Assembly: GCA_900319635.1 (NCBI GenBank)
Contig: ONPF01000006.1
Location: 1-64,000 of the forward strand
Source of the DNA: an uncultured Eubacteriales bacterium
GTDB lineage: Bacteria > Bacillota > Clostridia > Oscillospirales > Oscillospiraceae
Length of the DNA stretch: 64,000 nucleotides
Reading direction: 5' to 3'
Part shown: in pieces, positions 26,109 through 60,236 of the stretch
How the letters are laid out: each line of letters opens with the position of its first letter
How positions within the stretch are numbered: position 1 is the stretch's first letter
Translations under genes and position numbers: made by a program
Notes under the pieces: model-generated
The model's database searches: none
What the model saw: the letters and a program-made list of their open reading frames with translations, nothing else
What the model was told of the DNA's origin: nothing

Positions 26109-27353
26109 ATGTATAAGCCTCTTGCGGATGAAATTCGCCCCGATTCTCTGGACGAGGTGGTGGGCCAGCGGCATATCCTGGGCCCCGGCGGCCTGCTGCG
26201 CCGCATTGTGGAGAGCGGACAGATCCCCAACATGATCTTCTACGGCCCCTCCGGCACCGGGAAGACCACCGTGGCGCGGATCATCGCCCAGCGCACCAAC
26301 CGCAGCCTGCGCAAGCTCAACGCCACCACCGCCGGCATCGCGGACATCAAAAAGATCATCGACGAGCTGGACACCTTTCTGACCCCCGGCGGCGTGCTGC
26401 TGTACCTGGACGAGATCCAGTATTTCAACAAAAAGCAGCAGCAGTCCCTGCTGGAGTTCATCGAGGACGGGCGCATCACCCTCATCGCCTCCACCACGGA
26501 AAACCCCTATTTCTGCGTCTTTAACGCCATTTTGAGCCGTTCCACGGTCTTTGAGTTCAAGCCCGTCTCCGCCGCCGATGCCGAGCAGGCGGTGAAGCGG
26601 GCGGTGGAGATCGAAAACGCCCGGCGGGAGGCGCCCCTGACGCTGGAGGACGGGGTCACGAAGCGGATCGCCTCGGCCTGCGGGGGCGACGTGCGCAAGG
26701 CCATGAACGCGGTGGAGCTGCTGTTTGCCACCGCGGCGGAGCGCATCACCCTTGCCGACGCCCAGGCCCTCACCCAGCGCAGCGCCATGCGCTACGACCG
26801 GGACGGGGACGAGCATTTTGACTGTCTCTCGGCGCTGATGAAGTCCCTGCGGGGCTCGGATCCGGACGCGGCGGTGCATTACCTGGCGCGACTGCTGGAG
26901 GCCGGGGATCTGATCGGCGCCTGCCGCCGGATCCTCTGCTCCGCCAGCGAGGACATCGGCCTGGCCTACCCCCAGGCGGTGCCCATCGTGAAGGCCTGCG
27001 TGGATTCGGCCCTGCAGCTGGGCCTGCCGGAGGCGCGGCTGCCCCTGGCGGAGGCCTGCATCGTCCTCGCCACGGCGCCCAAGTCCAACACCGGCTGCGT
27101 GGCCATCGACCGGGCCATCGCGGACCTGCGGGCGGGGAAGGGCAAGGGCTTCCCGAGGGAGCTGCAGAACGTCCACGCCGACGGGACGGGCTTCGAGCGG
27201 GAGCAGGGCTATCTCTACCCCCATGACTTCCCCCACCGCTGGGTGAAGCAGCAGTACCTGCCGGACGAGCTGAAAAACGCCCGCTACTATGAGTACGGCG
27301 ACAACAAGACCGAGCAGGCCGCGAAAAAGTATTGGGACGAGATCAAGAAGTGA
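26109..27353 (+). CDS. rarA: replication-associated recombination protein A (MgsA/RarA)
   Basis: A 414-residue AAA+ ATPase acting at stalled replication forks. Walker A is FYGPSGTGKTTVA, Walker B LLYLDEIQYF, sensor 1 LIASTTENP and sensor 2 GGDVRKAMNA; the C-terminal half has the tetramerisation region typical of RarA (AVHYLARLLEAGDLIGACRR, ASEDIGLAYP). GGAGGAGACTCCT ATG selects MYKPLADE; eleven upstream in-frame codons overlap the promoter region. Length and motifs are normal. The stop codon merges with a palindromic element. Confidence 0.94.
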   Translation: MYKPLADEIRPDSLDEVVGQRHILGPGGLLRRIVESGQIPNMIFYGPSGTGKTTVARIIAQRTNRSLRKLNATTAGIADIKKIIDELDTFLTPGGVLLYLDEIQYFNKKQQQSLLEFIEDGRITLIASTTENPYFCVFNAILSRSTVFEFKPVSAADAEQAVKRAVEIENARREAPLTLEDGVTKRIASACGGDVRKAMNAVELLFATAAERITLADAQALTQRSAMRYDRDGDEHFDCLSALMKSLRGSDPDAAVHYLARLLEAGDLIGACRRILCSASEDIGLAYPQAVPIVKACVDSALQLGLPEARLPLAEACIVLATAPKSNTGCVAIDRAIADLRAGKGKGFPRELQNVHADGTGFEREQGYLYPHDFPHRWVKQQYLPDELKNARYYEYGDNKTEQAAKKYWDEIKK

Positions 27354-27464
27354 AAAATGAAGAATGAATAATGAATAATTATGGTATCGCCTTTGGCGAT
27401 AGATTATAATCCGTCCCGCGAAGCGGGACACCTCAATTTTTCACTTTTCATTTTTCATTCTTCA
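27353..27464 (-). repeat. covarying double-hairpin element, copy 1
   Basis: Between rarA and the DUF951 gene. AT-rich GAATGAATAATGAA-type ends (inverted against TTCATTTTTCATTCTTC) enclose two hairpins: ATCGCC/GGCGAT at 27386-27400 and GTCCCGC/GCGGGAC at 27413-27429. The order is the reverse of the copies at 53.4 and 60.1 kb, so this copy is in the minus orientation. Confidence 0.8.
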
Positions 27465-27481
27465 AAAAGGAGCTGGCACGA

Positions 27482-27658
27482 TTGGACATTCAGATCGGTG
27501 ACATCCTCACCATGAAAAAGCCCCATCCCTGCGGAAGTAAGGATTGGCAAGTGCTGCGCATCGGGGCGGATTTCAAGCTCCGCTGCTGCGGCTGCGGGCA
27601 TGAGGTCATGGGCGCCCGGGCAAAATTTGAAAAGAACGTCAAGCAGGTGAAGCGGTGA
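27482..27658 (+). CDS. DUF951 family protein
   Basis: A 58-residue protein starting at TTG (AAAAAGGAGCTGGCACGA TTG). The sequence [20 protein letters not shown], followed by [22 protein letters not shown], is the DUF951 signature, with cysteines at CG, CCGCG likely binding a metal. It is a small cytoplasmic protein of unknown function found across Firmicutes, often near ychF or parB. Its stop overlaps the GTG start of the GIY-YIG gene (GTGA). The TTG start makes it easy to miss. Confidence 0.85.
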
Positions 27659-27936
27659 ACAGTTGCTATATCCTCCGCTGCGCCGACGGGACGCTCTACA
27701 CCGGCTGGACCAACGATCTGGAGCGGCGGCTCAAAACCCACAACGCGGGGAAGGGCGGCAAGTACACCCGCGCCCGCCTGCCGGTGGAGCTGGTCTATTA
27801 TGAGCAATACCCCACCAAGGCGGAGGCCATGCGCCGGGAGTGGCGTATCAAGCGCATGCCGCGCGCGGAAAAGCTGCGGCTGATCGAGGCCCGCAGAGAG
27901 GCGTACCCAGACGCTTCCGGGCCAGCAACTTCGTAG
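27655..27936 (+). CDS. GIY-YIG nuclease family protein (YhbQ-like)
   Basis: A 93-residue single-domain GIY-YIG protein. The defining motif is modified to [22 protein letters not shown], with catalytic Tyr and Arg in place and [12 protein letters not shown] and the Glu-bearing [14 protein letters not shown] after it. Family members are small DNA-cleaving or repair-associated proteins. It starts with GTG, overlapping the DUF951 stop by 4 bp. Its last codons (ASGPATS) run to the edge of a GTAGGG-family repeat, so the C-terminus may have been altered by the insertion. Confidence 0.9.
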
Positions 27937-28052
27937 GGCCGACCATTGGTCGGCCGATCATGGATGTTCCTGCCTGTCGGACTGCGGACGAGCAATGCTC
28001 GTCCCTACGGGATCATCAGGGACGGAGCGATGAGGGCATCGCTCCCTACGGG
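27931..28052. repeat. three GTAGGG-family palindromes in tandem
   Basis: Units GTAGGGCCGACCATTGGTCGG at 27933-27953, then GGACGAGCAATGCTCGTCC at 27986-28004, and GGAGCGATGAGGGCATCGCTCC at 28022-28043, the last two followed by CTACGG. The same GGACGAGCAATGCTCGTCC core recurs at 48.7 kb. Confidence 0.65.
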
Positions 28053-28078
28053 AAAAGAAACACAAGTGAGGCAACACA

Positions 28079-29059
28079 ATGGAAGCAAAACCCTGTAAAG
28101 TCTCGGTGTTCTGCACCGTCTATAACCACGAGCCCTATCTGCGGCAGACGCTGGACGGATTCATCTCCCAGCAGACAGACTTCCCCTTTGAGGTGCTGGT
28201 GAACGACGACGTCTCCACCGACGGCAGCGCCGCCATCCTGCGGGAGTACGCGGCGAAATACCCGGACATCATCCGCCCCTTTTATCAGGAGAAAAACCTC
28301 TGGTCCCAGGGGATCGTCATCCACGACGCGGTGTTCGCGCCCGCGGCCCGGGGAGAGTATCTCGCCGCCTGTGAGGGGGACGACTGCTGGATCGACCCCC
28401 ATAAGCTCCAGCGGCAGGCGGACTTTCTGGACGCCCACCCGGACTACTCCGCCTGCGTACACAACAGCCTGGGGGAGAAGATCGGCTCCGGCGAGGAGCC
28501 CAGGCCCCTCTTTCCCCAGACCGGGGACCGGGACATCCCCTTCGAGACGGTGCTGCAGGGCATGAGCCACGCCTTCCACACCAGCTCCATCATGGCCCGG
28601 CGGGAGTGGATCGTGAATCCCCCGGATTTCCGGAACCTGGCCTACACCTACGGCTTTACCGACTACGCCGTGGGGCTCTGGCTCACCATGAACGGCAAGA
28701 TCCGCTTCCTGGACAGCTGCATGTCCCTCTACCGCATCGGCTCCAACCCCTCCGCCTGGAGCAGCGGGGTGAACCGGGAGTATCGAAAGCTCATCCGCTT
28801 CGTCACCGGGGAGGTGGAGATGCTCAAGTGTCTGCGCCCCCGGCTGGACGAAGGGCGGCAGGCCGCCCTGGACGAGGTGCTGCGGGAGCGGGAGTTTGAG
28901 CTTTTGTACCTCCGGGGCAAAACGGAGGAGCTGGTCAAGCCCCCTTATCGGGAGCTCTTCAAAGCAAAGCCCCTTTCCTTCCGGGCGGCGACCCGGCTGA
29001 AAAACGCATTCCCCGGGCTGCACCGCGCCTATCGCAAAAGGCGGGGCTACGGGGACTGA
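28079..29059 (+). CDS. family 2 glycosyltransferase
   Basis: A 326-residue GT-A fold glycosyltransferase. The nucleotide-binding start VSVFCTVYNHEPYLRQTLDG, the acidic metal-binding site VNDDVSTDGS (about 41-50) and ACEGDDCWIDPHKL are typical of GT2. The C-terminal half has WSSGVNREYRKLI and basic helices. It is the first gene of a five-gene glycan cluster transcribed in one direction. GTGAGGCAACACA ATG marks the start. The donor and acceptor sugars are unknown. Confidence 0.9.
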   Translation: MEAKPCKVSVFCTVYNHEPYLRQTLDGFISQQTDFPFEVLVNDDVSTDGSAAILREYAAKYPDIIRPFYQEKNLWSQGIVIHDAVFAPAARGEYLAACEGDDCWIDPHKLQRQADFLDAHPDYSACVHNSLGEKIGSGEEPRPLFPQTGDRDIPFETVLQGMSHAFHTSSIMARREWIVNPPDFRNLAYTYGFTDYAVGLWLTMNGKIRFLDSCMSLYRIGSNPSAWSSGVNREYRKLIRFVTGEVEMLKCLRPRLDEGRQAALDEVLREREFELLYLRGKTEELVKPPYRELFKAKPLSFRAATRLKNAFPGLHRAYRKRRGYGD

Positions 29060-29068
29060 GGACGGTTT

Positions 29069-30529
29069 ATGGATAATCGAAGCAAGGTAGTCAGCAATTT
29101 GATATGGCGCTTTTTCGAGCGTTTCGGCGCCCAGGCGGTGAACATCGTGGTGGGCATCGTCCTGGCCCGCAAGCTGGGCCCCGGCCCCGCCGGGGACATC
29201 GCGGTGATCCTGGCGGTGATCACGATCCTCCGGGTCTTTGCCGACAGCGGCATGGGCAACGCCCTCATCCAGAAGAAGGATCCGGACGATACGGACTTTT
29301 CCTCCGTGTTCTTCTTTAACCTGGGCTTCAGCCTGATCCTCTACGCGGCGCTGTTTCTGGCGGCGCCCTGGATCTCCGGGATCTACGGAAATGCGGACTA
29401 TGTGCCCATTCTGCGGGTGCTGGGGCTGCTGGTGGTGGTGTCGGGGCTCTTTAACGTGCAGCAGGCCTATGTGGCCAAGACCATGCAGTTCAAGCGCTTC
29501 TTCTTCGCCACCCTGGGCGGTACCCTGGCCTCCTGCGTGCTGAGCATCGCCATGGCCTACTGGGGCTACGGGATCTGGGCGCTGGTGGCGCTGCACCTGG
29601 TCAGCTACGCGGTGAACACGGCCATCCTCTGGTTCACGGTGGACTGGCGCCCCCGGCGGCTGTTTTCCTTCGGGCGGCTCAAAGGGCTGCTGGCCTACGG
29701 CTGGAAGCTGCTGGCCGCCTCCTTCCTGGATACGGTCTATCTGCAGCTCTACCCCCTGCTCATCGGCGCCCGCTTTCCCAAGGAGGAGCTGGGACAGTTT
29801 GACAAGGGGCGCAACTGGCCGGATCAGATCACCCAGAGCATCAACGCCTCCATCGACGGGGTGCTGCTGCCGGTGCTCTCCGCCGAGCAGGACGACAAGC
29901 ATCGGGTGCGGGAGATGACCCGCCGCGCCATCAAGACCAGTTCCTTTGTGATGATGCCGCTGATGGCGGGGCTGGCCGTCTGCGCCCAGCCTCTGGTGCA
30001 CCTGCTGCTGGGGGAGGAGTGGATGCCCTGTGTGCCCTTCCTGCAGATCTTCTGCGTGATCTACGCCTTCTACCCCCTGCACACCGCGAACCTCAACGCC
30101 ATCAAGGCCATGGGGCGCAGCGACGTGTTTCTGGTGCTGGAGATCCTGAAAAAGCTGGTGGAGACGGGGGCGCTGCTCATCACGCTGCGCTACGGCGTCT
30201 TTGCCATGGCGCTGGGACAGCTGGTTTCCAGTGTTCTCGCCCAGATCATCAACGCCTGGCCCAACCGGAAGCTGCTGGACTATCCCTATCTGCGGCAGCT
30301 TCTGGATCTGCTGCCGGCACTGCTGCTCTCCGCCGCCATGGGCGCGGCGGTCTGGACGGTGACCCGGCTGGGCCTTTCCGATATTCTGACCCTGCTGATC
30401 CAGGTGCCCCTGGGCGCTTTGCTCTATGTGCTGGGCTCCTGGCTAATGAAGCTGGAAAGCTTCACATTCCTGCTCTCGACTGCGAAAAAGATGCTGCACC
30501 GCAGCACGGAAGGAGAAAACCATGGCTGA
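29069..30529 (+). CDS. polysaccharide flippase (Wzx/TuaB-like)
   Basis: A 486-residue membrane protein with about twelve to fourteen helices, of the polysaccharide exporter family (MATE/MVF-like; WzxC, TuaB). The N-terminus (NLIWRFFERFGAQAVNIVVGIVLARKLGP) is the family signature, and the C-terminal half has the PST domain. It would flip lipid-linked sugar units across the membrane. It starts 9 bp after the glycosyltransferase and overlaps the ATP-grasp gene by 8 bp, so these genes are one operon. Confidence 0.9.
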   Translation: MDNRSKVVSNLIWRFFERFGAQAVNIVVGIVLARKLGPGPAGDIAVILAVITILRVFADSGMGNALIQKKDPDDTDFSSVFFFNLGFSLILYAALFLAAPWISGIYGNADYVPILRVLGLLVVVSGLFNVQQAYVAKTMQFKRFFFATLGGTLASCVLSIAMAYWGYGIWALVALHLVSYAVNTAILWFTVDWRPRRLFSFGRLKGLLAYGWKLLAASFLDTVYLQLYPLLIGARFPKEELGQFDKGRNWPDQITQSINASIDGVLLPVLSAEQDDKHRVREMTRRAIKTSSFVMMPLMAGLAVCAQPLVHLLLGEEWMPCVPFLQIFCVIYAFYPLHTANLNAIKAMGRSDVFLVLEILKKLVETGALLITLRYGVFAMALGQLVSSVLAQIINAWPNRKLLDYPYLRQLLDLLPALLLSAAMGAAVWTVTRLGLSDILTLLIQVPLGALLYVLGSWLMKLESFTFLLSTAKKMLHRSTEGENHG

Positions 30530-31811
30530 TGTGAAAAACGTGTTGGTATTTCCCGCTGGGACGGAGATCGCCTTTGAGATCTATGACGCGCTGTACCGCA
30601 GCAAATTCGTCAAGCTCTTCGGCGCCACCAGCGTCCCCTGCCACGCGGAATTTGTGTTTGAAAACTGCGCGGAGGACGTCCCCTTCCCGAACCATCCGGA
30701 TTTTCTGGAAAAGATCAACGAGGTCGTGGATCGCTGGCACATTGATTACATCTACCCCGCCCACGACAGCGCCCTGCTCGCGCTGACGCGGCTGCAGGGG
30801 CAGCTGCATGCTGAGGTGGTGACCAGCGCCCTGGAGACGGTGGAGATCTGCCGGGACAAGAACCGTACTTACACGTTCCTGGCGGGGGCGGAGTATCTGC
30901 CCGCGTCCTACGCCGACGCCGACGCGGTGCCGACCTACCCGGTGTTCATCAAGCCCGCGGTGGGGCAGGGCTCCCAGGGCGCCCGGCGCATCGACAGCCG
31001 CGCCCAGCTGGAGGAGGCCCTGGCCGAGGGCGTGGACTACGCCATTTGCGAGTACTTACCCGGCGAGGAGGTGTCGGTGGACTGCTTCACCGACCGGCAC
31101 GGCGCCCTGCGCCTCGCAAGCCCCCGCAGCCGGGAGCGGATCCGGGCGGGGATCGCCGTGCGCTCCCGGATCCTGCCGGAGGATCCGGCTATCGCCGCCA
31201 TCGCGGCGGATCTGAACCGGCGCTTCTCCTTCCGCGGCGCCTGGTTTTTCCAGATCAAGAAGAACGCGGCAGGCGCATACCGGCTGATGGAGGCCGCCCC
31301 CCGGGTGGCCGGCACCATGGGCCTCACCCGCAACCTGGGAGCAAACCTCCCCCTGATGACGCTCTTCGACCGCTGGGGCTATGATCTGGATCTGCTGCTC
31401 AACGAGCACGCCCAGCTGCTGCTGGATCGGGCCTTCATCAGCCGCTTCAGCTCCGATCTGCACTATCAGAAGGTCTATGTGGACTATGACGATACGCTCA
31501 CCATCAACGGCAAGGTCAACGGGGAGCTGATGCGTTTCCTCTACCAGGCCAGGGATGCGGGGAAGGAGCTGATCCTCCTGTCCCGGTCGCACCAGGATCT
31601 GATGGCGGACATGCGCCGCCGGGCCATCTGCGAGGGGCTGTTTGATCAGATCATCTGGCTGAAGGAGGGCGAGGCGAAGCCCGACTTTATCGAGGGAGAC
31701 GCCATTTTCATTGACGACTCCTTTGCCGAACGGCGCCGGGTCAGAGACGCCTGCCATATCCCCGTGTTCGACGTGGACATGGTGGAGAGCCTGCTGGACT
31801 GGCGCAGCTGA
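30522..31811 (+). CDS. ATP-grasp enzyme fused to a HAD domain
   Basis: A 429-residue fusion. Residues about 1-310 form an ATP-grasp ligase: an N-terminal pre-ATP-grasp part, TYPVFIKPAVGQGSQGARRI for ATP binding, YAICEYLPGEEVSVDC and the metal-binding FQIKKNAAGAYRLMEAAPRV. Residues about 325-429 are a HAD hydrolase-like domain with motif I VYVDYDDTLT, motif II LSRSHQ and motif IV IFIDDSFAERR. ATP-grasp enzymes join a carboxylate to an amine; here they may attach an amino acid to a sugar, with the HAD part removing a phosphate. Both roles are inferred. Confidence 0.85.
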   Translation: MADVKNVLVFPAGTEIAFEIYDALYRSKFVKLFGATSVPCHAEFVFENCAEDVPFPNHPDFLEKINEVVDRWHIDYIYPAHDSALLALTRLQGQLHAEVVTSALETVEICRDKNRTYTFLAGAEYLPASYADADAVPTYPVFIKPAVGQGSQGARRIDSRAQLEEALAEGVDYAICEYLPGEEVSVDCFTDRHGALRLASPRSRERIRAGIAVRSRILPEDPAIAAIAADLNRRFSFRGAWFFQIKKNAAGAYRLMEAAPRVAGTMGLTRNLGANLPLMTLFDRWGYDLDLLLNEHAQLLLDRAFISRFSSDLHYQKVYVDYDDTLTINGKVNGELMRFLYQARDAGKELILLSRSHQDLMADMRRRAICEGLFDQIIWLKEGEAKPDFIEGDAIFIDDSFAERRRVRDACHIPVFDVDMVESLLDWRS

Positions 31812-31825
31812 AAAGAGGGAAGTCT

Positions 31826-32929: not shown

Positions 32930-32933
32930 CCCT

Positions 32934-35552: not shown

Positions 35553-35574
35553 GGCGGAGCCTCCCGTATAAGTC

Positions 35575-35603
35575 TTGACGGCGGGTTCAGTTCAGAGTAC
35601 AAT
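35575..35603 (+). promoter_or_regulatory. sigma-A promoter of the 273-aa membrane protein
   Basis: TTGACG, 17 bp, TACAAT, 38 bp before the ATG. Confidence 0.75.
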
Positions 35604-35641
35604 AACAATCTACCCAACCTTATGGAAACGGAAGCGGAATT

Positions 35642-36463: not shown

Positions 36464-36479
36464 TGGGAATAAAAAACAG

Positions 36480-36522
36480 CCGGGAGGATTTCATTTCTGA
36501 AATCCTCCCGGATCTTTTTTTG
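36480..36522. terminator. bidirectional terminator
   Basis: A 14-bp perfect stem (CCGGGAGGATTTCA / TGAAATCCTCCCGG), loop TTTC, then ATCTTTTTTT. It separates two convergent genes. Confidence 0.92.
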
Positions 36523-36529
36523 TCTTGGG

Positions 36530-37978: not shown

Positions 37979-37984
37979 GAAAAC

Positions 37985-38422: not shown

Positions 38423-38423
38423 A

Positions 38424-38517
38424 TCAAGCTGTCGACAAAGTGTCGACAGCTTGAAAGCAAGAATGGGAACTTCCGAAAAAAGTTCCCATTCTTGCGTAGA
38501 TTGAACGTGAAGGGGGG
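38424..38517. repeat. 94-bp exact repeat with two hairpins, copy A
   Basis: Identical over 94 bp to 61784-61877. It contains the palindrome AAGCTGTCGACA-AAG-TGTCGACAGCTT and the hairpin AAGAATGGGAACTT/AAGTTCCCATTCTT. A further 24 bp, from TGGGCGAAGGG to CTACAGTCT (38570-38593), is also shared; copy A carries 52 extra bases between the two blocks. Confidence 0.9.
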
Positions 38518-44807: not shown

Positions 44808-45010
44808 CATTATAATGATCATCGGATGGCGAAAACAATCGAGGGTTCGATTGTTTTCGCTGCCAAACGACAAGTTTGGCAGCGAATGATTCGTTGAATC
44901 ATTCGCCCGATGCTCATTGCAATGAATATATGGCAAAACAGCCGTGCTGTTTTGCTGCGCCGCAAAGCGGCGCGGCGAAAAGCTTTTCGCCATCATATAA
45001 TCATTATAAT
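44808..45010. repeat. chain of seven hairpins bounded by an inverted repeat
   Basis: An 11-bp inverted repeat (ATTATAATGAT at 44809-44819, ATCATTATAAT at 45000-45010) and an inner GATGGC/GCCATC pair enclose consecutive hairpins: 44829-44860 (14 bp), 44861-44881 (8 bp), 44882-44906 (10 bp), 44914-44923, 44933-44955 (10 bp), 44957-44973 (7 bp) and 44974-44991 (perfect palindrome). No open frame spans it. Confidence 0.8.
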
Positions 45011-48691: not shown

Positions 48692-48732
48692 AGGCTTCCT
48701 CCTGTTTATGCGCTTCAATCCGGATACGAGTG

Positions 48733-48860: not shown

Positions 48861-49023
48861 TTTCACGCTTCTCTTCCATTGTACCACAGGCTTTTCCCTG
48901 TGGCAACAGCAAGGAAAGAAGTGTTTCCTTTTTTCTGGAAATTGATGTTTAATAGGTACTTAGAGGCTCGCTGCGCTCCGGGGGATCCGGAGAACGAAGG
49001 GCCCAAAAAAAGGAGAGTACAAC

Positions 49024-49224: not shown

Positions 49225-49237
49225 GGAGCGTGATAGT

Positions 49238-50374: not shown

Positions 50375-50378
50375 AATC

Positions 50379-51805: not shown

Positions 51806-51810
51806 GCGCC

Positions 51811-53337
51811 ATGGAGCTGGACAAGCGTTTTCGCTGCGAGGCGCTGCGGGAGAAGCTCATGACCGCCGACGAGGCCGCCCTGCTTGTTCAAGACGGGGAC
51901 ACCGTGGCCGTCAGCGGCTTCACCCCCTCCGGCTGCCCCAAGGCGGTGCCTCTGGCCCTGCGGGAGCAGGTGCGCTCAGGCCGGCGGAAGCTGCGCCTGG
52001 GGCTCTTCTCCGGCGCCTCCACCGGCGAGGAGCTGGATTCCGCCTGGGCGGAGGAGGATATGATCGCCTACCGCCTGCCCTACATGACCAGCAAGGCTCT
52101 GCGCACTGCCGTGAACGGCGGCAGCGCCCAGGGCGTGGCCTACACCGACCTGCACCTTGGCATGGTGGCGCAGAACGCCCGCTACGGCTTCTACGGCCCC
52201 ATCCGGGTGGCCATCATCGAGGCCGCCGCCATCACCGAGGAGGGGCATCTGATCCCCACCACCGCGGTGGGCTGCTCCCAGACCTGGATCGACCTGGCCG
52301 ATAAGGTCATCGTGGAGCTGAATCTCCGCCAGCCCGCGGAGCTGGAGGGCTTCCATGACATCTACCGGGTGGCCGATCCCCCCCTTCGTCAGCCCATCCC
52401 CCTCACCGACGCCGCCCAGCGCATCGGCGTGCCCTACCTCACCTGCCCGGCGGAGAAGATCGCCGCTGTTGTGATCTCCGACCTGCCGGAGAAGCCCCGG
52501 GCGCTGGCGCCGGAGGATGAGGTGAGCAAGCAGATCGCCCGGAACATCGTCTCCTTCCTGAAAAACGAGAAGGCCGCGGGCCGGCTCTCCGCCGACGTGT
52601 GCCCGCTGCAGTCCGGCGTGGGCTCGGTGGCAAACGCCGTGCTCCTGGGGCTCCGAGACTCGGATTTTGAGCATCTGCGCTTCTTCTCCGAGGTCATGCA
52701 GGACGGCATTCTGGATCTCATCGACGCCGGCAAGGCCGACATGGCCTCCGCCACCTCCCTCTCCCTCTCCGAAGCGGGGATGCAGCGGCTGCTGGGCAAC
52801 CTGGAGTCCTACCGGGGCAAGCTCATCCTGCGGGATTCCGAGATTTCCAACAACGGCGAGGTGATCCGGCGCCTGGGCGTCATCGCCATGAACACCGCCG
52901 TGGAGGCGGACATCTACGGCAACGTGAACTCCTCCCAGATGAACGGCACCAGCGTCTACAACGGCATCGGCGGCTCCGGGGACTACGCCCGCAACTCCGC
53001 CATCTCCATCTTCATGACAAACTCCGTGGCCAAGGGCGGCAAGATCTCCAGCATCGTGCCCATGGTGACCCATGTGGATCACTGCGAGCATGACGTGGAC
53101 GTGCTGGTCACCGAGCAGGGCTATGCGGATCTGCGGGGCTTGAGCCCCAAGCAGCGGGCGGTAAGCATCATCGAAAACTGCGCCCATCCGGACTATCGTC
53201 CCCAGCTCCGCGCCTATTTTGAGGCCGCATGCGCCGCCACCCACGGCGCCCAGACCCCTCACCTGCTGGATCGCTGCTTCTCCTTCCACCAGCAGCTGAA
53301 AAAAACCGGCTCCATGCGGCTGGACGAAGAGGAATGA
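51811..53337 (+). CDS. acetyl-CoA hydrolase/transferase (succinyl-CoA:acetate CoA-transferase-like)
   Basis: A 508-residue CoA transferase of the Cat1/Ach1/AarC family. Expected features are GDTVAVSGFTPSGCPKAVP near the N-terminus, GSVANAVLLGL, IGGSGDYARNSA and the catalytic-region VTEQGYADLRGLSPKQRA. It moves CoA between succinyl-CoA and acetate or similar acids. ATG at 51811 has GGGGTGAG upstream; a GTG at 51802 overlapping the korC stop is the alternative. Direct coupling to korC suggests a 2-oxoglutarate to succinyl-CoA to succinate path that conserves the thioester. A palindromic element begins at its stop. Confidence 0.92.
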   Translation: MELDKRFRCEALREKLMTADEAALLVQDGDTVAVSGFTPSGCPKAVPLALREQVRSGRRKLRLGLFSGASTGEELDSAWAEEDMIAYRLPYMTSKALRTAVNGGSAQGVAYTDLHLGMVAQNARYGFYGPIRVAIIEAAAITEEGHLIPTTAVGCSQTWIDLADKVIVELNLRQPAELEGFHDIYRVADPPLRQPIPLTDAAQRIGVPYLTCPAEKIAAVVISDLPEKPRALAPEDEVSKQIARNIVSFLKNEKAAGRLSADVCPLQSGVGSVANAVLLGLRDSDFEHLRFFSEVMQDGILDLIDAGKADMASATSLSLSEAGMQRLLGNLESYRGKLILRDSEISNNGEVIRRLGVIAMNTAVEADIYGNVNSSQMNGTSVYNGIGGSGDYARNSAISIFMTNSVAKGGKISSIVPMVTHVDHCEHDVDVLVTEQGYADLRGLSPKQRAVSIIENCAHPDYRPQLRAYFEAACAATHGAQTPHLLDRCFSFHQQLKKTGSMRLDEEE

Positions 53338-53486
53338 AGAAATGAAGGGCCTGCGGCCAATGAGGGAATTGAGGTGTCCCGCATGGCGGGACGGATTTGA
53401 ATGCATCGGCGAAGCCGATACCATCATTTCTTCATGAGCGAAGCGTCTTCATTTCTTCATTAGGCGAAGCCGAGCTTCATTTCATT
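53333..53486 (+). repeat. covarying double-hairpin element, copy 2
   Basis: Between the CoA transferase and the TIGR00300 gene. Hairpins GGCC/GGCC (53348-53358), GTCCCGC/GCGGGAC (53376-53392) and ATCGGC/GCCGAT (53405-53419) are framed by GAATGAAGAAATGAAG and CTTCATTTCTTCATT. The ATCGGC/GCCGAT arm pair differs from copies 1 and 3 by matched changes. Confidence 0.82.
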
Positions 53487-53524
53487 TAAGATGTTCTGCC
53501 TTTGCAGAGAAAGGATCGATTTTT

Positions 53525-54622: not shown

Positions 54623-54625
54623 AGG

Positions 54626-54692
54626 TAGGTTTCAGATTTCAGAATTCAGTTTTCAGAGTTCAGTTTTCAGAGTTCAGTTTTCAGCGTTCAGA
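54626..54692. repeat. TTCAGAGTTCAGTTTTCAG periodic repeat
   Basis: Five to six 9-12-bp variants of TTCAGA(A/G)TTCAGTTT in a row directly after the TIGR00300 gene. Related short runs lie at 13391-13427, 13505-13531 and, as CAAAACTCAAAACT, at 22691-22723. Confidence 0.65.
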
Positions 54693-54725
54693 ATTGCGTT
54701 TTGCGCTTTGAGGGGCCGCCCGCCT

Positions 54726-54813
54726 GTCATTCTGAGGAGCGCCAGCGACGAAGAATCTCGCCGTTGCCAAGCATGCGCCGGGGGCGAGATCCTTCGCTTG
54801 CGCTCAGGATGAC
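54726..54813. repeat. long inverted repeat GTCATTCTGAGG...ATGAC
   Basis: GTCATTCTGAGGAGCG and CGAAGAATCTCG pair with CGAGATCCTTCG and CGCTCAGGATGAC, giving an imperfect hairpin of about 35 bp per arm around a short spacer. No gene is present. Confidence 0.7.
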
Positions 54814-54854
54814 GGCGTAAGGGCGACCTTTGGTCGCCCGCGGATCTGCGCAGG

Positions 54855-54980
54855 AGCGACCGGCCGGCGACCGGCCGGCGACCGACCGGCGTCCGACCGG
54901 CGTCCGACCGGCGTCTGACCGGCGACCGACCGGCGTCCGACCGGCGACCGACCGGCGTCCGACCGGCGTCCGACCGTCAT
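54855..54980. repeat. 11-bp tandem repeat array (11 units)
   Basis: Eleven consecutive 11-bp units, alternating mainly between GGCGACCGACC and GGCGTCCGACC, start at 54855, 54866, 54877 and so on to 54965, then decay. All units are the same length. There are no spacers, so it is not a CRISPR array. It is readable as an Arg/Gly/Thr-rich repeat in several frames, but no ribosome site or conserved start supports a protein. Confidence 0.9.
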
Positions 54981-55031
54981 CCGGAAATACCGACATAAAA
55001 ACCTGCGGGCGGCCAATGGCCGCCTGCACTT

Positions 55032-55440
55032 GTCATTGCGAACCAGTGACCGACGTCACTGGTGTGGCAATCCGCGTCCCTTGTCCCTTGCCTCCCCTGC
55101 AAGGGGAGGTGCCCAGTGCGCACACTGGGCGGAGGGGTCTCCCCGCCCGCCCTTGCCTCCCCTGAAAGGGGTCTTGGGTGTGTCGCGGCAAGCGCAGCGC
55201 AGACGTGACGGAGGGGTTCGGTGTGGCGATCCGTTTTCTCTTTTTTCGTAGTAGGGGCGGGCCTTGTGCCCGCCCTTGCCTCCCCCCTCCGGGGGAGGTG
55301 TCGCGGCGCGTCTCACGCAAGCGCCGTGACGGAAGGGGTCAAGAAACGAGGGGTCGGGCCGTCGAGGGCGCCGGCCCCTACGGCGGAGACGGACGGTTTC
55401 TTCGTAGGGGCTGCCCTCCGCAGCCCGCTTTGCGAGGCTG
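55032..55440. repeat. patchwork of palindromic repeats
   Basis: Holds a TCATTGCGAACCAGTGACCG...GTGGCAATCCG element (55032-55076), three TTGCCTCCC/GGGGAGG elements (55088-55140, 55152-55220, 55275-55345) and GTAGGG-family units (55251-55275, 55347-55382, 55402-55430). I see no gene between 54623 and 55490. Confidence 0.65.
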
Positions 55441-55451
55441 TGCGGGATCGG

Positions 55452-55485
55452 GAAAAAGACGGCAGGGAGCGGTGTGCTCCCTGCC
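55452..55485 (-). terminator. terminator of the small-gene cluster
   Basis: GGCAGGGAGC/GCTCCCTGCC stem, followed on the minus strand by GTCTTTTTCCC. It lies 6 bp past the zinc-ribbon gene. Confidence 0.8.
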
Positions 55486-55490
55486 TTTCT

Positions 55491-55667
55491 TTATGGGTGT
55501 CGTTTTCCCCAACAGTCTATGCACATGATGATCCCATTATCCTCGGTAATAAATGTATCAAGGTATTCTCCGCCACATATAGGGCATGTGTAGAAAATAT
55601 GACCTGGGGCATCATCATAGGTGTGTTGGTCAAGTTCGTCAAGATTTACATTGTCATAGTTCGGCAT
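55491..55667 (-). CDS. 58-residue zinc-ribbon protein
   Basis: A small protein starting MPNYDNVNLDELDQHTYDD, with CPICGG and, 19 residues on, CIDCWG: two C-x2-C knuckles that could hold one zinc ion. The acidic N-terminus and short basic tail (GKRHP) leave room for only one fold. The ribosome site is weak (TTGAAAG ATG). It is the last gene of an AT-rich minus-strand cluster with the 69- and 52-residue proteins and ends just before a terminator. Function unknown. Confidence 0.7.
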   Translation of the reverse strand: MPNYDNVNLDELDQHTYDDAPGHIFYTCPICGGEYLDTFITEDNGIIMCIDCWGKRHP

Positions 55668-55680
55668 CTTTCAATTATCC

Positions 55681-55890
55681 TTAGTCGTCTATTTCAATCA
55701 CGTCAAAATCTGCCTCTCCATCCTCTCGCTCTTCCCAGGGGTTAGACATTTCAAGGATTTCGCCACCCAGCCTAAAACAACTGACAGCATCGCATCCGTA
55801 GTCTGTGGCCTCCTCCTCGGTTTCAAACACGGGGTCTTCTTCCCACGAAGACCCATTGGGAGAATGAATTACAACCTTATACTTTGGCAT
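55681..55890 (-). CDS. 69-residue acidic protein
   Basis: A very acidic soluble protein (MPKYKVVIHSPNGSSWEEDP, ending ADFDVIEIDD). It has a beta-strand-like start and many Glu/Asp. AAGGAGGAACCCGAAT ATG gives a strong ribosome site. It lies 13 bp before the zinc-ribbon gene and 17 bp after the 52-residue gene. Lower GC than the chromosome suggests transfer. No family recognised. Confidence 0.68.
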   Translation of the reverse strand: MPKYKVVIHSPNGSSWEEDPVFETEEEATDYGCDAVSCFRLGGEILEMSNPWEEREDGEADFDVIEIDD

Positions 55891-55907
55891 ATTCGGGTTC
55901 CTCCTTA

Positions 55908-56066
55908 TTACTTCCTCTTTTGAGAAGAAGCCAACTTCATCATTTTTCGAGAATAAGTAGCCCCATCAATTTTCTCGTTGTCGTATTGGTTCATTAGTTT
56001 ATCTACTTTGCTTTTTATCTTTTTCCGCTCTTTCTCGCTGTCCTTAGATTTCCCAAATAAACCCAT
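55908..56066 (-). CDS. 52-residue basic helical protein
   Basis: Starts MGLFGKSKDSEKERKKIKSK and is almost all charged helix (DKLMNQYDNEKIDGATYSRKMMKL). GGAGGTGCTATT ATG selects this start; a longer in-frame extension to 56225 has no ribosome site of its own. It is the first gene of the small AT-rich cluster behind a TTGACG/TACAAT promoter. A short glycine-phenylalanine N-terminus followed by basic helix could bind membrane or nucleic acid. Function unknown. Confidence 0.65.
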   Translation of the reverse strand: MGLFGKSKDSEKERKKIKSKVDKLMNQYDNEKIDGATYSRKMMKLASSQKRK

Positions 56067-56305
56067 AATAGCACCTCCAAAAAATAATGATTCTGGTTGA
56101 TTTTGCGTGAAAGCACAATCTTTCATCGGCCATATGTTGCCTCGGCGGTTCGTGTTATTCGACTGTTGAGGATTCTCAAGACCGTCATTCCCTCGCCCTC
56201 TCTTTTTTGTTAGTTCACCGCGCATTTCTCGAGAAAAAGGAGCAACTCAAGCCGTGAAGAAAGCCTTGCTGATAGTAATACATTAACATATCAGTAAGTA
56301 TTAGT

Positions 56306-56335
56306 ATTGTAGCATATTTTGCTTCGATCCGTCAA
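56306..56335 (-). promoter_or_regulatory. promoter of the small AT-rich gene cluster
   Basis: On the minus strand TTGACG, 18 bp, TACAAT. It leaves a leader of about 230 nt before the first start codon. It is divergent from the RHH gene. Confidence 0.7.
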
Positions 56336-56369
56336 TCTATAATTCTATCAAGATTGCGAGGTGGAGCAA

Positions 56370-56552
56370 ATGAAAAATGAACCCCTGATTATCAAGAAAA
56401 GAGGCGAGGATGGCAACCGCATTATCTCCGTGCGGATCCGGGAGGAGACGCTGACCGCGCTGGACAAGCTAGCCGCAGAGACCAACTATTCCCGCAATGA
56501 ACTGATCAACCTGATCCTCGCTCACGGATTGGATAATATAGAGATACAGTGA
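56370..56552 (+). CDS. ribbon-helix-helix DNA-binding protein
   Basis: A 60-residue protein with a ribbon-helix-helix fold: a strand (IISVRIREETLTALDKLA) and two helices (ETNYSRNELINLILAHGLDN). These bind DNA as dimers of beta ribbons and often act as antitoxins or autoregulators. GAGGTGGAGCAA ATG gives the start; a GTG three codons earlier is possible. No toxin partner lies beside it. It stands divergent to the small AT-rich cluster and may control it. Confidence 0.82.
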   Translation: MKNEPLIIKKRGEDGNRIISVRIREETLTALDKLAAETNYSRNELINLILAHGLDNIEIQ

Positions 56553-56693
56553 TGCTGCTGCAGGAGCATGCTTTGCCGCGGCTGAATCTTGATAGGCAAA
56601 AAATAGCCGCCTGCCGGGTCATACGACCCCACGGGCGGCAATTCTGACGAAAAAGAGGCACCTCCTTGGTAAGAATGAGGTAAGGATGAGGGC

Positions 56694-56835
56694 TGGAGCT
56701 GCTGGGCAGATTCGTTCTGTTTTCCCTTGCGGGAGACGGGAAAACAGAATAGAGGTATCGACCAGTGTTTGCACTGGTCGATGCAGGCCACCTATGTGGC
56801 CTGCGGACATGATTCGAATCTGCCCAGCAGCTCCA
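56694..56835. other. four-arm cruciform built from tRNA-Thr 3' end
   Basis: A perfect 21-bp inverted repeat (56694-56714 against 56815-56835) closes three perfect hairpins: 56715-56749 (12 bp), 56757-56782 (11 bp) and 56783-56804 (9 bp). The outer arm, read CGAATCTGCCCAGCAGCT plus CCA, equals the T-arm and acceptor end of the adjacent tRNA-Thr. A fragment like its anticodon arm (TCCTTGGTAAGAATGAGG) lies at 56663-56680. Confidence 0.85.
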
Positions 56836-56869
56836 AAAAAGCAGATACCCGAATGGGTATCTGCTTTTT
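56836..56869 (-). terminator. terminator of the tRNA-Asp/tRNA-Thr operon
   Basis: AAAAAAGCAGATACCC/GGGTATCTGCTTTTTT with loop GAAT, immediately after the tRNA-Thr CCA on the minus strand. Confidence 0.92.
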
Positions 56870-56945
<76 letters not shown>

Positions 56946-56979
56946 AAAGTACATGCCCCCTATTGGGGGGGGGCATGTG

Positions 56980-57056
56980 TGGCGACCGAGAAGGGACTTG
57001 AACCCTCGACCTCCGGCGTGACAGGCCGGCGTTCTAACCGACTGAACCACTCGGCC
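56980..57056 (-). tRNA. tRNA-Asp (GTC)
   Basis: A 77-nt tRNA, GGCCGAGTGGTTCAGTCGG on, with acceptor stem GGCCGAG/CTCGGTC, anticodon loop CTGTCAC giving GTC, T-loop TTCAAGT and encoded CCA. It is first in the operon. The 34-bp spacer to tRNA-Thr holds a hairpin (ACATGCCCCC/GGGGGGCATGT) likely used in processing. Confidence 0.97.
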
Positions 57057-57067
57057 ACGGCTCAGTT

Positions 57068-57096
57068 AGTGTACCAAAAGATTTTGCATTTGTCAA
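57068..57096 (-). promoter_or_regulatory. promoter of the tRNA operon
   Basis: On the minus strand TTGACA, 17 bp, TACACT, ending 11 bp before tRNA-Asp. Confidence 0.85.
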
Positions 57097-57141
57097 CACT
57101 TTTTTTCGTACACGTCGTATTTTTTCAAAAAACCTGTGTTT

Positions 57142-57202
57142 GAGCACGGGGGACGGGTCCGTGTGTCCCCCGCGGGACACGCGGCTCCGTCCCCCTGTGC
57201 TC
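57142..57202. other. long GC-rich hairpin
   Basis: GAGCACGGGGGACGGGTCCG pairs imperfectly with a right arm ending CCCCCTGTGCTC, about 27 bp with a few mismatches. It follows the ABC permease gene and may act as its terminator; a T-run (TTTTTTG) lies about 10 bp further on the minus strand. Confidence 0.6.
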
Positions 57203-57211
57203 CGGCTGCGC

Positions 57212-58798
57212 TTACAGCGCGTCGAAGATCCGGGTTCCCTTCTTCCGCAGCCAGAGGTACAGCAGCGCGCACAGCACCAGCAGCAGCCCCAGCATGCCGA
57301 AGCCCACCGCCTCCATGGAGATATAGTCCCCCAGCAGGGCGTAGACCAGCACCGGCAGGGCGGACATGCCCATGCCCACGAACATGGTGATCATGACGCT
57401 GGCGCCGCTCTTCACGGCCTGGGTCTCGTTGACCCAGTTGAAGTTGGGGTGGCGCAGATTCTCGAAGAGGCCCAGCAGGGCGCTGAACAGGGCATAGGCC
57501 GGGGGCAAGGCGAAGAGCAGCACCAGGGTGAGGCCCTTGTAGCCCAGCACCAGCGCCATCACCGTGGAGCAGAGCAGCAGCGCCGGCACCGCCAGCAGCA
57601 GATGCAGCCGGAGCTTTGCCTGCAGGATGTCCCAGGAGGAGACGGGCAGAGATTTGGGCAGCCACAGGCTCTTGCCCTCCAGGGAGATGGAAGGCGCGGT
57701 GAGGATGATCGTCACCGCCATGAAGCAGGCCGCGACCACGAAGATCGACTGCAGCAGCGGCGCGATATAGGGCCACTCGGGCATCCCCGTGAGAGCCTTG
57801 CCCTTCACGAGCAGCGCCACGGCGGCGAGCACCACGAAGAACACGCCCAGGCCGCCGTTGAGCAGGTAGGCGGGCAGTCCCCAGAGCCGGCGCAGCTCCT
57901 GGATCAGCAGGGCGGCGCGGGGGGAGTGCGCCCTGGCGGTGCGCTCCACATAGCGCTTCTTGGCGCCGGTGCCCCGGGCGGTGGCCGTGCGGATAAAGGT
58001 GCGGGAGAGCAGCAGCAGCGCCAGCACGCCCAGCGCCAGGGAGGCCGCCAGCAGGAGCAGCAGCGGCAGCAGCTCGCCCTGGGTGACGGCCTTGCCGATC
58101 CAGACCAGGGGCGCCACCGCGCCCAGGGATTTCTCCAGTCCCTCGTGATTTTCCACCAGGCTCGTCAGCATGCTGTTCATCCGGAAGCTGAAATACATGT
58201 AGCCGCCCAGGAAGGCCAGGGAGATGACCAGGGTGATCAGGCTCTTGTTGCGGGCGCGGGCGGAGGCCAGGTGGATCAGCCAGCCCAGCAGGGACGAGAC
58301 CACCAGGTTCAGCAGCGGCAGGATCACAAAAAAGCTCAGGATCAGGGCGACCCAGCCCGGAACGCCCACGCTGCCCGGCCAGTACAGCATCGCGGGGATC
58401 ACCACCGGCAGCGCCAGCACCTCCGCCAGCACCAGCAGCAGAAAGAGGCGGCTGAGCAGGATGTGGATGGGCTTGATGGGCATGCTCAGCAGCAGGTCGT
58501 TGTCCTTGGCCTCGTAGAGCTGGGACTTGGCGACAAAGACGTTGCCCACCAGCATCAGACCGAAGGTGATCACCGCGGCCAGGGCGAAGTACAGCCAGCC
58601 CAGGCCGGCCCAGTGAAAGGCGGGGCCGATGACCTCAAAGATCCGGGAGAAGAGGGTGCCGATGGAGACCAGGGAGAGGATCATCAGCGCCGCAAAGCCG
58701 ATGAGCTTGCCCTTGCTTTGGGCTTTCTTGGTTCTGCTGGCGCCGGTGAGGACGCTGAGCAGAGCCTCCAGCCGGTTTTTCAGCAGTACCTTAAGCAT
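57212..58798 (-). CDS. ABC transporter permease
   Basis: A 528-residue membrane protein with about twelve to fourteen helices and no soluble enzyme domain. Stretches such as NDLLLSMPIKPIHILLSRLFLLLV and LWLPKSLPVSSWDILQAKLRLHLL are typical of large ABC-2-like permeases paired with a single ATPase. ATG at 58798 overlaps the ATPase stop by 8 bp. Upstream in-frame sequence is a shadow of the ATPase gene. Substrate unknown; such pairs often handle peptides or drugs. Confidence 0.87.
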   Translation of the reverse strand: MLKVLLKNRLEALLSVLTGASRTKKAQSKGKLIGFAALMILSLVSIGTLFSRIFEVIGPAFHWAGLGWLYFALAAVITFGLMLVGNVFVAKSQLYEAKDNDLLLSMPIKPIHILLSRLFLLLVLAEVLALPVVIPAMLYWPGSVGVPGWVALILSFFVILPLLNLVVSSLLGWLIHLASARARNKSLITLVISLAFLGGYMYFSFRMNSMLTSLVENHEGLEKSLGAVAPLVWIGKAVTQGELLPLLLLLAASLALGVLALLLLSRTFIRTATARGTGAKKRYVERTARAHSPRAALLIQELRRLWGLPAYLLNGGLGVFFVVLAAVALLVKGKALTGMPEWPYIAPLLQSIFVVAACFMAVTIILTAPSISLEGKSLWLPKSLPVSSWDILQAKLRLHLLLAVPALLLCSTVMALVLGYKGLTLVLLFALPPAYALFSALLGLFENLRHPNFNWVNETQAVKSGASVMITMFVGMGMSALPVLVYALLGDYISMEAVGFGMLGLLLVLCALLYLWLRKKGTRIFDAL

Positions 58799-59504
58799 GA
58801 TCGTCCTCCAGTTCCAGGAACACGTCCTCCAGAGAGGCGTTGCCCTTGACCTCCTGCATGGAGCCGCTGGCGACCAGACGGCCCTCCTTGATGATGGCGA
58901 CCTTGTCGCAGAGCTTCTCCGCCACGTCCAGCACGTGGGTGGAGAAGAAGATGGCACCGCCCTTCCGGCAGTGTTCGTGCATCAGCTCCTTGAGCAGATG
59001 GGCGGCCTTGGGATCCAGGCCCACAAAGGGCTCGTCCATGAGGATGAGCTTCGGCTCGTGGATCCAGGCGGCGATCAGCGCCAGCTTCTGCTTCATGCCG
59101 TGGGAGAAGGCGGAGATGGGCTGGGCCAGGTCGCCCTCGATGCCCAGCATCTCGGCGTAGGTGTGGATGCGCTCCCGGCGAACCGTGGGCTCCACCCGGA
59201 ACACGTCCCCGATGAAGTTCAAAAAGCGGATGCCGGTCATAAACTCATAGAGATCCGGGTTATCCGGAATATAGGCCATCTGCTGCTTGCAGGCCAGGGG
59301 ATCGGCCTGGATGTCCAGGCCGCCGATGCGGATCTGCCCCTCCTCGAAGGGCAGGATGCCGGCGCAGGCCTTCAGGGTGGTGGTCTTGCCGGCGCCGTTG
59401 TGGCCGATGAAGCCGTAGATTTCGCCCGGGGCGATATGCAGGCTCAGATTGTCCACGGCCTTCTTGTCGCCGTAGCTTTTGGTCAGATGTTCAATGGTCA
59501 GCAT
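58791..59504 (-). CDS. ABC transporter ATP-binding protein
   Basis: A 237-residue ATPase. Walker A is GHNGAGKTTTLK, the signature FSHGMKQKL, Walker B LILMDEPFVGLDP and the switch His is in FFSTHVLD. It matches the ABC-2 type (NatA/YthP-like) group. It drives the adjacent permease, whose start overlaps its stop, and lies 48 bp after a DUF1648 membrane protein gene in the same direction. Confidence 0.94.
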   Translation of the reverse strand: MLTIEHLTKSYGDKKAVDNLSLHIAPGEIYGFIGHNGAGKTTTLKACAGILPFEEGQIRIGGLDIQADPLACKQQMAYIPDNPDLYEFMTGIRFLNFIGDVFRVEPTVRRERIHTYAEMLGIEGDLAQPISAFSHGMKQKLALIAAWIHEPKLILMDEPFVGLDPKAAHLLKELMHEHCRKGGAIFFSTHVLDVAEKLCDKVAIIKEGRLVASGSMQEVKGNASLEDVFLELEDDHA

Positions 59505-59552
59505 AGAATTGCCTCCTTGTATGGTGTTCGGATGTTTGAATGTCCGCTTGCC

Positions 59553-60056
59553 TTATCGCGCGCGGCGCAGGCGGATGAAATAGCGCAGCAGCGGCGCGAA
59601 GATCACGATCAGCATGATGCCGGTCACGTTGCCACTGAAATGCTCCGGCAGGTTTGCCTGGTACACGGCAAAGCCGGCGAAGGCCAGCGCGCAGCTCAGC
59701 CGCATGTCAGCCATCATGTCTCGCAGCACCCGGTAGACCCGGGCCCGGTTCAGCACCGTGATGCGCACGCCTGTGTTCCAGCTTTTTGGGAAGCGTGCGC
59801 AGATGGCAACTGTCAGGTCCGTCAACAGTCCGATGATGGGCATCAGCAGCAGGGATCCCCGGCCACCGTAGCCGTCGATCTCTCCGGCGAAGTTATAATG
59901 GGTGGGGATCTTCTCCGGCAGCGTATGCCAGAGGATGAGAATGTATACGATACTGCCCAGCAGCATCAGCGGCGCCAGGATCCCCGCGATGCGCTGATAC
60001 CGTGTGGTGGGGGAGCCGCAGAAGGCGTCCACCTGGGCGCGGGAGGGGATGCGCAT
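59553..60056 (-). CDS. DUF1648 domain membrane protein
   Basis: A 167-residue protein with about four membrane helices. The DUF1648 motif is LPEKIPTHYNFAGEIDGYGG with RGSLLLMPIIGL after it. Known proteins with this domain include SdpI-like immunity proteins, but full SdpI features are not seen here. GGAGGCTCTC ATG gives the start. It is upstream of the ABC transporter genes and may be cotranscribed with them. A palindromic element lies directly upstream. Confidence 0.86.
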   Translation of the reverse strand: MRIPSRAQVDAFCGSPTTRYQRIAGILAPLMLLGSIVYILILWHTLPEKIPTHYNFAGEIDGYGGRGSLLLMPIIGLLTDLTVAICARFPKSWNTGVRITVLNRARVYRVLRDMMADMRLSCALAFAGFAVYQANLPEHFSGNVTGIMLIVIFAPLLRYFIRLRRAR

Positions 60057-60069
60057 GAGAGCCTCCTTT

Positions 60070-60236
60070 CGGGAAATGAAGACGCTTCGCTAATGAAGAA
60101 ATGAAGCAGAATGAAGGGCCTTCGGCCAATTGCGGTGTGCCGCAAGGCGGCACGGATTGTTAATCGTCGCCGGAGGCGACACCATCAATTCCTTCATAGG
60201 CGAAGCCGACTTCATTCCTTCACTCCTTCATTTGAT
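60070..60236 (+). repeat. covarying double-hairpin element, copy 3
   Basis: Hairpins GGCC/GGCC (60117-60127), GTGCCGC/GCGGCAC (60137-60153) and GTCGCC/GGCGAC (60166-60180) lie between GAATGAA-type and TTCATTCC-type ends. Both main stems differ from copy 1 by compensating base changes. The right end runs into the stop of the RHH gene. Confidence 0.82.

What the first reader, a model, noticed from the sequence alone, without database searches (positions are those of the whole stretch)
27353..60236. Three-copy intergenic element with compensating changes in both hairpins
Copies at 27353-27464 (minus), 53333-53486 and 60070-60236 (plus) share order: GAATGAA-type end, AATTG(A/C)GGTGT stem 1, GGATT spacer, stem 2, ACCAT(C/A)A, TTCATT-type end. 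Stem 1 is GTCCCGC/GCGGGAC in two copies and GTGCCGC/GCGGCAC in the third. Stem 2 is ATCGCC/GGCGAT, ATCGGC/GCCGAT or GTCGCC/GGCGAC. Each change is matched on the other arm, so folding is selected. All copies sit at gene ends. I know of no described family with this form.
Basis: partly seen in the sequence, partly recalled or inferred. Interest (0 to 1): 0.72.

Follow-up and report, generated by a model that had tools for sequence, protein, structure and literature searches.

The report
Twin-hairpin DNA repeat with heptamer arms
The three matching sequences are copies of a large family of short, non-coding, palindromic DNA repeats scattered at gene ends in rumen and gut Oscillospirales bacteria, whose hairpins change on both arms at once, more like a rewritten DNA palindrome than a conserved RNA.

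Summary
Observation confirmed: three copies at the stated places, with the stated stems. They belong to a dispersed family: 52 places at E<=0.1 in the own genome; matches in 28 of 61 genomes of the genus and 44 of 394 of the order (part of them chance). Each copy is two inverted half-elements (GGT, hairpin, GGATT) between inverted arrays of 7- or 8-base repeats. The core recurs; the arm unit differs between genomes.

Pairing is kept far more often than broken: 367 of 376 stem cells. At orthologous sites 37 of 68 hairpins have different but perfect stems, 20 the same, 11 an imperfect one. "So folding is selected" does not follow: G-T pairs are rare, double changes outnumber single ones (26 v 3 cells), and loops suit single-stranded DNA. 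DNA template switching or conversion fits better.

Best reading: a REPIN-like, non-autonomous palindromic repeat whose hairpins and arms are rewritten in place. No mobilising enzyme was found; 20 RAYT-like loci examined carry no copy. Nine paper searches found no description.

The parts
27350..27466 (-). copy 1, whole element: core plus 7-base-repeat arms; contains the TGA stop (27351-27353, + strand) of the RarA/MgsA gene; outer limits by eye
27376..27438 (-). copy 1 core, 84.7 bits with model R1 (this copy was in the model)
27413..27429 (-). copy 1 hairpin 1, GTCCCGC-TTC-GCGGGAC
27386..27400 (-). copy 1 hairpin 2, ATCGCC-AAA-GGCGAT
53333..53486 (+). copy 2, whole element: 8-base-repeat arms with small extra palindromes (GGGCCTGCGGCC, AGGCGAAGCC); contains the TGA stop (53335-53337) of the upstream gene
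53367..53429 (+). copy 2 core, 85.2 bits (in the model)
53376..53392 (+). copy 2 hairpin 1, GTCCCGC-ATG-GCGGGAC
53405..53419 (+). copy 2 hairpin 2, ATCGGC-GAA-GCCGAT
60070..60236 (+). copy 3, whole element: 8-base-repeat arms with small extra palindromes; contains the TGA stop (60228-60230, - strand) of the 67-aa gene 60228-60431
60128..60190 (+). copy 3 core, 82.1 bits (in the model)
60137..60153 (+). copy 3 hairpin 1, GTGCCGC-AAG-GCGGCAC
60166..60180 (+). copy 3 hairpin 2, GTCGCC-GGA-GGCGAC

Best explanation
A dispersed, non-coding, palindromic DNA repeat of REPIN-like layout. Shown: a core of two inverted half-elements (AATTnnGGT, hairpin, GGATT), set between inverted arrays of a 7- or 8-base unit; gene-end position; presence and absence at orthologous sites; stems that differ between orthologous copies yet stay paired. 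Inferred: it spread as a miniature non-autonomous element by some enzyme acting in trans on the hairpins, landing mostly between genes read in the same direction, at the upstream gene's stop codon. Once there, the DNA folds back when single-stranded, and hairpin-primed template switching, slippage and conversion between copies rewrite stems and arms. The paired changes are then largely a product of how the DNA is copied, helped by very stable short-loop hairpins, and not proof of a selected RNA.
For: Near two-fold symmetry: 25 of 52 own places score on both strands at E<=0.1. Pairing with very few G-T pairs: 365 of 367 paired cells are Watson-Crick; G-T is 2 of 343 (own), 24 of 764 (genus) and 18 of 418 cells (named records). 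In one search (18 copies, 17 distinct, picked by me, mostly high-scoring) changes on both sides make 26 cells and on one side 3. Loops read from outside to centre are TNC in 31 of 52, 79 of 122 and 38 of 65 hairpins, GNA in 7, 11 and 11 (about 1 in 16 expected each); 211 of 239 are closed by GC/GC or CC/GG. So the other strand carries GC-GNA-GC or CC-GNA-GG, the first being a very stable DNA mini-hairpin (recalled, no call). A species pair with 95-96% alike flanks shows A-T to T-A in one stem (L338 v L343). Orthologous sites kept: 34 pairs, 68 hairpins: 20 same and perfect, 37 different and perfect in both, 11 different and imperfect in one (62 of 96 comparisons left out). The 11 commonest stems occur in all three sample sets. 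Gain or loss: at site 1, 8 of 27 readable relatives have 3-7 bases where the own genome has 132, and a ninth (L207) looks gapless by eye; at site 3 the own genome alone of 30 loci shows the twin hairpins in the 260 bases printed, two others having a long-stem half of a sister type. Context: 26 of 30 two-armed own copies lie between tandem genes, 2 divergent, 1 convergent, 1 at a contig end.
Against: No transposase was tied to it and no target-site duplication was shown. In the 25 longest of 321 pairwise alignments, two-armed own copies are only 75-84% alike, so there is no sign of recent jumping. Tandem-gene placement (26 of 29, against 19 of 29 for neighbouring long ORFs in the window) also suits an RNA role between cistrons. 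G-T pairs reach 3-4% outside the own genome. Template switching alone does not explain why the same stems recur at unlinked sites in different genomes; conversion or selection would have to add to that.
Confidence: 0.5

Rival explanations
1. A selected RNA element between cistrons: the folded transcript protects the upstream mRNA 3' end or tunes expression of the next gene, and compensatory changes are kept by selection on the RNA.
For: Strong fold, strong covariation against shuffles and slid partners, tandem-gene placement.
Against: Few G-U intermediates; near two-fold symmetric core scored on both strands at 25 of 52 places; patchy presence (28 of 61 genomes); stems replaced whole at orthologous sites; no Rfam match on the copies tested.
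Confidence: 0.2
2. An ordinary REPIN family moved by a RAYT (Y1, HUH) transposase.
For: Two inverted palindromic units, single-unit remnants, dozens of places in the genome, gene-end location; RAYT-like genes in the own genome; 12 of 19 genomes with 5 or more element matches against 8 of 42 others have a low-scoring Y1 hit, Fisher p 0.001, list compiled by hand (a fragment in G075 left out) and not corrected for kinship.
Against: No GTAG/GTGG tag kept at the hairpin foot; 0 matches of model R1 in 74 kb around 20 RAYT-like genes of 14 genomes, several of which lie, by eye, beside GTAGGGGCG palindromes instead; 7 of 19 element-rich genomes have no low-scoring hit in that list.
Confidence: 0.15
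3. No transposition: 7- and 8-base arrays arise at stop codons by slippage, are mirrored by template switching, and the twin hairpins grow in place.
For: Other 7-base arrays without twin hairpins stand at the same stop codon in relatives (TAGTTCG, TAGTGCT, TTTTCAG types at site 1); arm units shift between species at orthologous sites.
Against: The same core with AATTnn, GGT and GGATT recurs at unlinked loci and in other families of the order with different arms, which points to descent of the core.
Confidence: 0.15

Closest known systems
REPINs / REP dimers of the GTAG and CGTC super-families (PMC3116915: passages; PMC3733652: abstract and passages)
   Same: Small inverted pairs of palindromic units, many copies, gene-end location, single-unit remnants, compound clusters; REP dimers inside longer palindromes are described for A. 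variabilis and H. neapolitanus.
   Different: No conserved unpaired GTAG or CGTC tag; loops mostly of 3 and of the form GNA/TNC; arms are inverted arrays of 7- or 8-base repeats; no associated RAYT found.
Intergenic heptamer arrays: TAACTGA repeats (PMC4679880: abstract and one section read); cyanobacterial STRR (search listing only, otherwise recalled)
   Same: Tandem 7-base units between genes, with in-frame stop codons.
   Different: Here arrays come as an inverted pair around a twin-hairpin core, and the unit differs by genome.
Template-switch-maintained hairpins (PMC8794818: abstract and passages read)
   Same: Perfect stems with multi-base compensatory changes made in one event.
   Different: A mutation process inferred for RNA genes, not a repeat family.

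Membership tests
REPIN / GTAG REP | Two inverted palindromic units close together | tested here: met
   (50 of 52 own places printed): GGT-hairpin-GGATT in inverted pairs in the two-armed copies, plus single halves
REPIN / GTAG REP | Conserved GTAG/GTGG tetranucleotide at the hairpin foot | tested here: not met
   foot is nnGGT with variable nn; GTGG only in some copies
REPIN / GTAG REP | RAYT gene flanked by the units | tested here: not met
   0 matches around 20 RAYT-like genes; only these 20 of those listed were examined
CGTC REP | Unpaired CGTC tag, stem of 8-9 bp with A-T pairs in first and second position, loop of 4-5 | tested here: not met
   stems mostly 5-8 bp beginning G-C or A-T then T-A, loop of 3; definition from PMC3733652
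MITE with terminal inverted repeats | Target-site duplication at filled sites absent from empty sites | tested here: inconclusive
   empty sites exist but the relatives are too diverged at the borders
Rfam RNA family | Match at gathering score | tested here: not met
   window: only two tRNAs; six loci with copies: no match on a copy at E<=1
Heptamer STRR / TAACTGA arrays | Tandem 7-base units between genes | tested here: met
   best lag 7 in 13 of 30 own two-armed copies (8 in 15, 9 and 10 in 1 each) and in 20 of 21 further copies from named records and one viral contig

The most novel reading that the evidence does not exclude
A widespread class of bacterial DNA element in which a conserved twin-hairpin core is passed on while its flanking arrays, mostly 7 (sometimes 8) bases per unit but of a different sequence in different genomes, and its hairpin stems are repeatedly rewritten in a coordinated, palindrome-preserving way by a dedicated copying or conversion activity not yet described.
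Probability: 0.2. Interest if true: 0.75.

Novelty: new variant of a known kind. Interest (0 to 1): 0.5.

Why it matters
It gives a natural, high-copy system in which 'compensatory change' can be followed site by site in related species and in which selection on RNA can be separated from DNA template switching. It warns that covariation alone does not prove a functional RNA. It also ties two open puzzles, 7-base arrays between genes and REP-like palindromes, into one structure across an order of rumen and gut bacteria.

Tried and rejected
All-frame stop codons as the general rule for the arms. Read inwards the arms hold 213 stop triplets against 17 on the other strand (60 own arms), and 184 against 39 (42 further arms); stops in all three frames in 25 of 60 against 0, and 28 of 42 against 3. 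But the inward strand is purine-rich: plain letter shuffles give a mean of 13.1 (max 24) and 14.1 (max 20), and the arm units AGTGTAC (L379), AGTGGAC (L391) and GAGAGTG (L393) have none (by eye). The adjacent gene's stop was itself an arm unit in 14 of 35 inbound ends by a rough codon score. Kept as a lead only.

RAYT as driver: tested and not supported. Rfam: nothing on the copies. Beyond the genus: of the 29 new loci printed, by eye about 20 show a paired twin-hairpin core or half and 9 are chance or other hairpins, so 44 of 394 (strict filters, 13 candidates scored per genome) is a rough figure. Maribacter, Flavivirga and Methylotenera hits show no paired stem and were dropped. A first ortholog parser failed, a loose one (47 pairs; 20 same, 57 different and perfect, 17 different and imperfect) let in foreign hairpins, and one search is the stricter count; its pairs are not independent, since one site is compared in several genome pairs and sometimes in both directions. 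accept a stem before they count it, so mismatched stems are under-counted there; one search used anchors only, but counted 57 of 72 halves (two length classes). One search also needs a near-paired stem and arm-like upstream sequence; its set labelled 'othergenera' holds records of the same genus too. A period-7 array scan at high stringency found none in the window itself and 17 in 203 kb of own loci, so the arms are imperfect arrays.
Full report
What is there. In each, two hairpins are separated by GGATTnnnAATC and closed by GGT/ACC and AATT/AATT; copy 1 folds as a four-arm structure, copies 2 and 3 fold with both hairpins but less regularly. Read from the outside to the centre each half is AATTnnGGT, hairpin, (G)GATT. 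The halves are inverted, and 25 of 52 own places score on both strands at E<=0.1. The 8-base arms often carry extra small palindromes.

How many. Model R1 (6 copies) finds 77 matches at E<=0.1 in the 2.16 Mb own genome, at 52 places. I fetched and printed 50 of them. By eye 30 are two-armed copies; the rest are halves, compound forms or weak matches, such as window 44948-44998, which is another hairpin chain. Some halves face each other across other repeats (L126) or across ruvC- and ruvA-like genes (L128; gene names by eye).

Where. In the genus, 28 of 61 genomes have a match at E<=0.01 and 19 have five or more matches, both strands counted. In the order, 44 of 394 at E<=1e-4, in 35 of 169 genera (strict filters; by eye 9 of the 29 new loci printed are not the element). 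Named records with copies or halves are rumen and gut Oscillospiraceae or Ruminococcaceae MAGs, Candidatus Oscillibacter excrementigallinarum and Candidatus Enterenecus avicola (a half). One viral contig of the collection matched.

Core constant, arms different. In other genomes the same core sits between other units: AATTCGT (L244, L271), AATTGAC (L269, L270, L258), AATTAGG (L274, L277), AATAAAG (L272), and AGTGTAC (L379), AATTAGT (L386), AGTGGAC (L391), AGATAGG (L396), AGTGGAT with AGTTGAC (L400). In 21 further copies the best lag is 7 in 20 and 8 in 1. Within the genus the unit shifts by species: GAATAG occurs 0.74 times per arm in G093 (29 copies), 0.12 in the own genome, 0.02 in G006, 0.37 in G059, 0.95 in G045 and 1.67 in G060 (3 copies), also at orthologous sites.

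Pairing. Hairpins located only by flanking anchors: 34 of the 7-bp class pair in 235 of 238 cells (shuffled arms: mean 197, max 210) and 23 of the 6-bp class in 132 of 138 (mean 111, max 120) (15 of 72 halves fell in other length classes and were not counted). On 18 chosen copies (17 distinct) 97.9% of cells pair, 26 cells change on both sides against a shuffled mean of 4.9, and slid partners give at most 6. So the structure is real. Three facts speak against simple RNA selection. First, one-sided, G-U type changes are rare (3 cells; 2 of 367 paired cells), though G-T cells reach 3-4% in relatives. Second, orthologous copies often carry wholly different perfect stems: 37 of 68 hairpins, with 20 the same and 11 imperfect. 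Third, a few stems recur: 62 distinct among 239 hairpins, the 11 commonest in all three sample sets. A pair of species with 95-96% alike flanks differs by A-T to T-A in one stem. Loops are TNC read inwards, hence GNA on the other strand, in 148 of 239 hairpins. PMC8794818 (passages) reports that loops stable in both DNA and RNA are enriched where compensatory changes appear at once.

Presence and absence. Site 1 (RarA/MgsA to DUF951; families): 28 of 30 loci could be read, own included; 8 of 27 relatives have 3-7 bases where the own genome has 132, and a ninth (L207) looks gapless; own, G045, G101 and G060 carry the twin-hairpin element and G110 a one-hairpin remnant; others hold different 7-base arrays at the same stop codon. 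Site 2: filled in the own genome and in G006 with identical hairpins and a different number of arm units; G055, G059 and G093 keep only the left arm or half; G077 and G051 have none. Site 3: twin hairpins only in the own genome among 30 loci (260 bases printed each); G006 has an AATTCCG array there, and L231 and L239 a long-stem half of a sister type. Target duplications could not be shown.

Context. By a codon score trained on 30 long ORFs, 26 of 30 copies lie between tandem genes, 2 between divergent and 1 between convergent genes, and 1 is at a contig end; neighbouring long ORFs in the window are tandem in 19 of 29. The score is rough.

Enzyme. In the genus 56 of 102 genomes have a Y1 transposase match, canonical or divergent. 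The own genome has two divergent ones, RAYT-like by sequence as I read it. Twenty such loci from 14 genomes hold no copy of the element and several lie, by eye, beside GTAGGGGCG palindromes. Element-rich genomes have such genes more often (12 of 19 against 8 of 42), which may be kinship.

Conclusion. A REPIN-like palindromic DNA repeat with heptamer arms, not found described in the nine searches made (open-access papers only). The paired changes are real; their cause is more likely DNA copying and conversion than RNA selection, but that is inference.

Noticed in passing
window 38424-38517 and 61784-61877; L157 against L155: A 94-base identical repeat (TCAAGCTGTCGAC...AAGGGGGG). In G093 a related copy lies between 26-base direct repeats of a hairpin that is single in G059, and the second window copy lies between two near-identical GGGGAGGGRCAAGCCCCTCCCCT palindromes: it looks like a miniature element that targets hairpins and duplicates them.
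   Followed up: partly
window 44850-45010: A chain of about five consecutive hairpins, a different element type.
   Followed up: no
window 13386-13537 and 54627-54699: Other heptamer arrays (TTTTCAG type), the first as an inverted pair around a terminator-like hairpin.
   Followed up: no
window 54823-54992: An 11-base tandem repeat (GCGTCCGACCG-like), spacing 11 throughout.
   Followed up: no
G000:C5:69553-69855 and G000:C41:17343-17630; L307-L326: RAYT-like genes; several encode RRGDPCGRP, which looks like a GTAG-type REP read in frame inside the transposase gene.
   Followed up: partly
window 56813-56892: A perfect 38-base inverted repeat whose second arm overlaps the end of the tRNA gene at 56873-56945.
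   Followed up: no
L244 4202-4292: Match to Rfam mir-633 at E 7e-6, below the gathering score; probably another palindromic repeat.
   Followed up: no
L016, L231, L239: A related half-element with a long stem GTTTTTGAGGC(A/G)GC..., perhaps a sister family.
   Followed up: no
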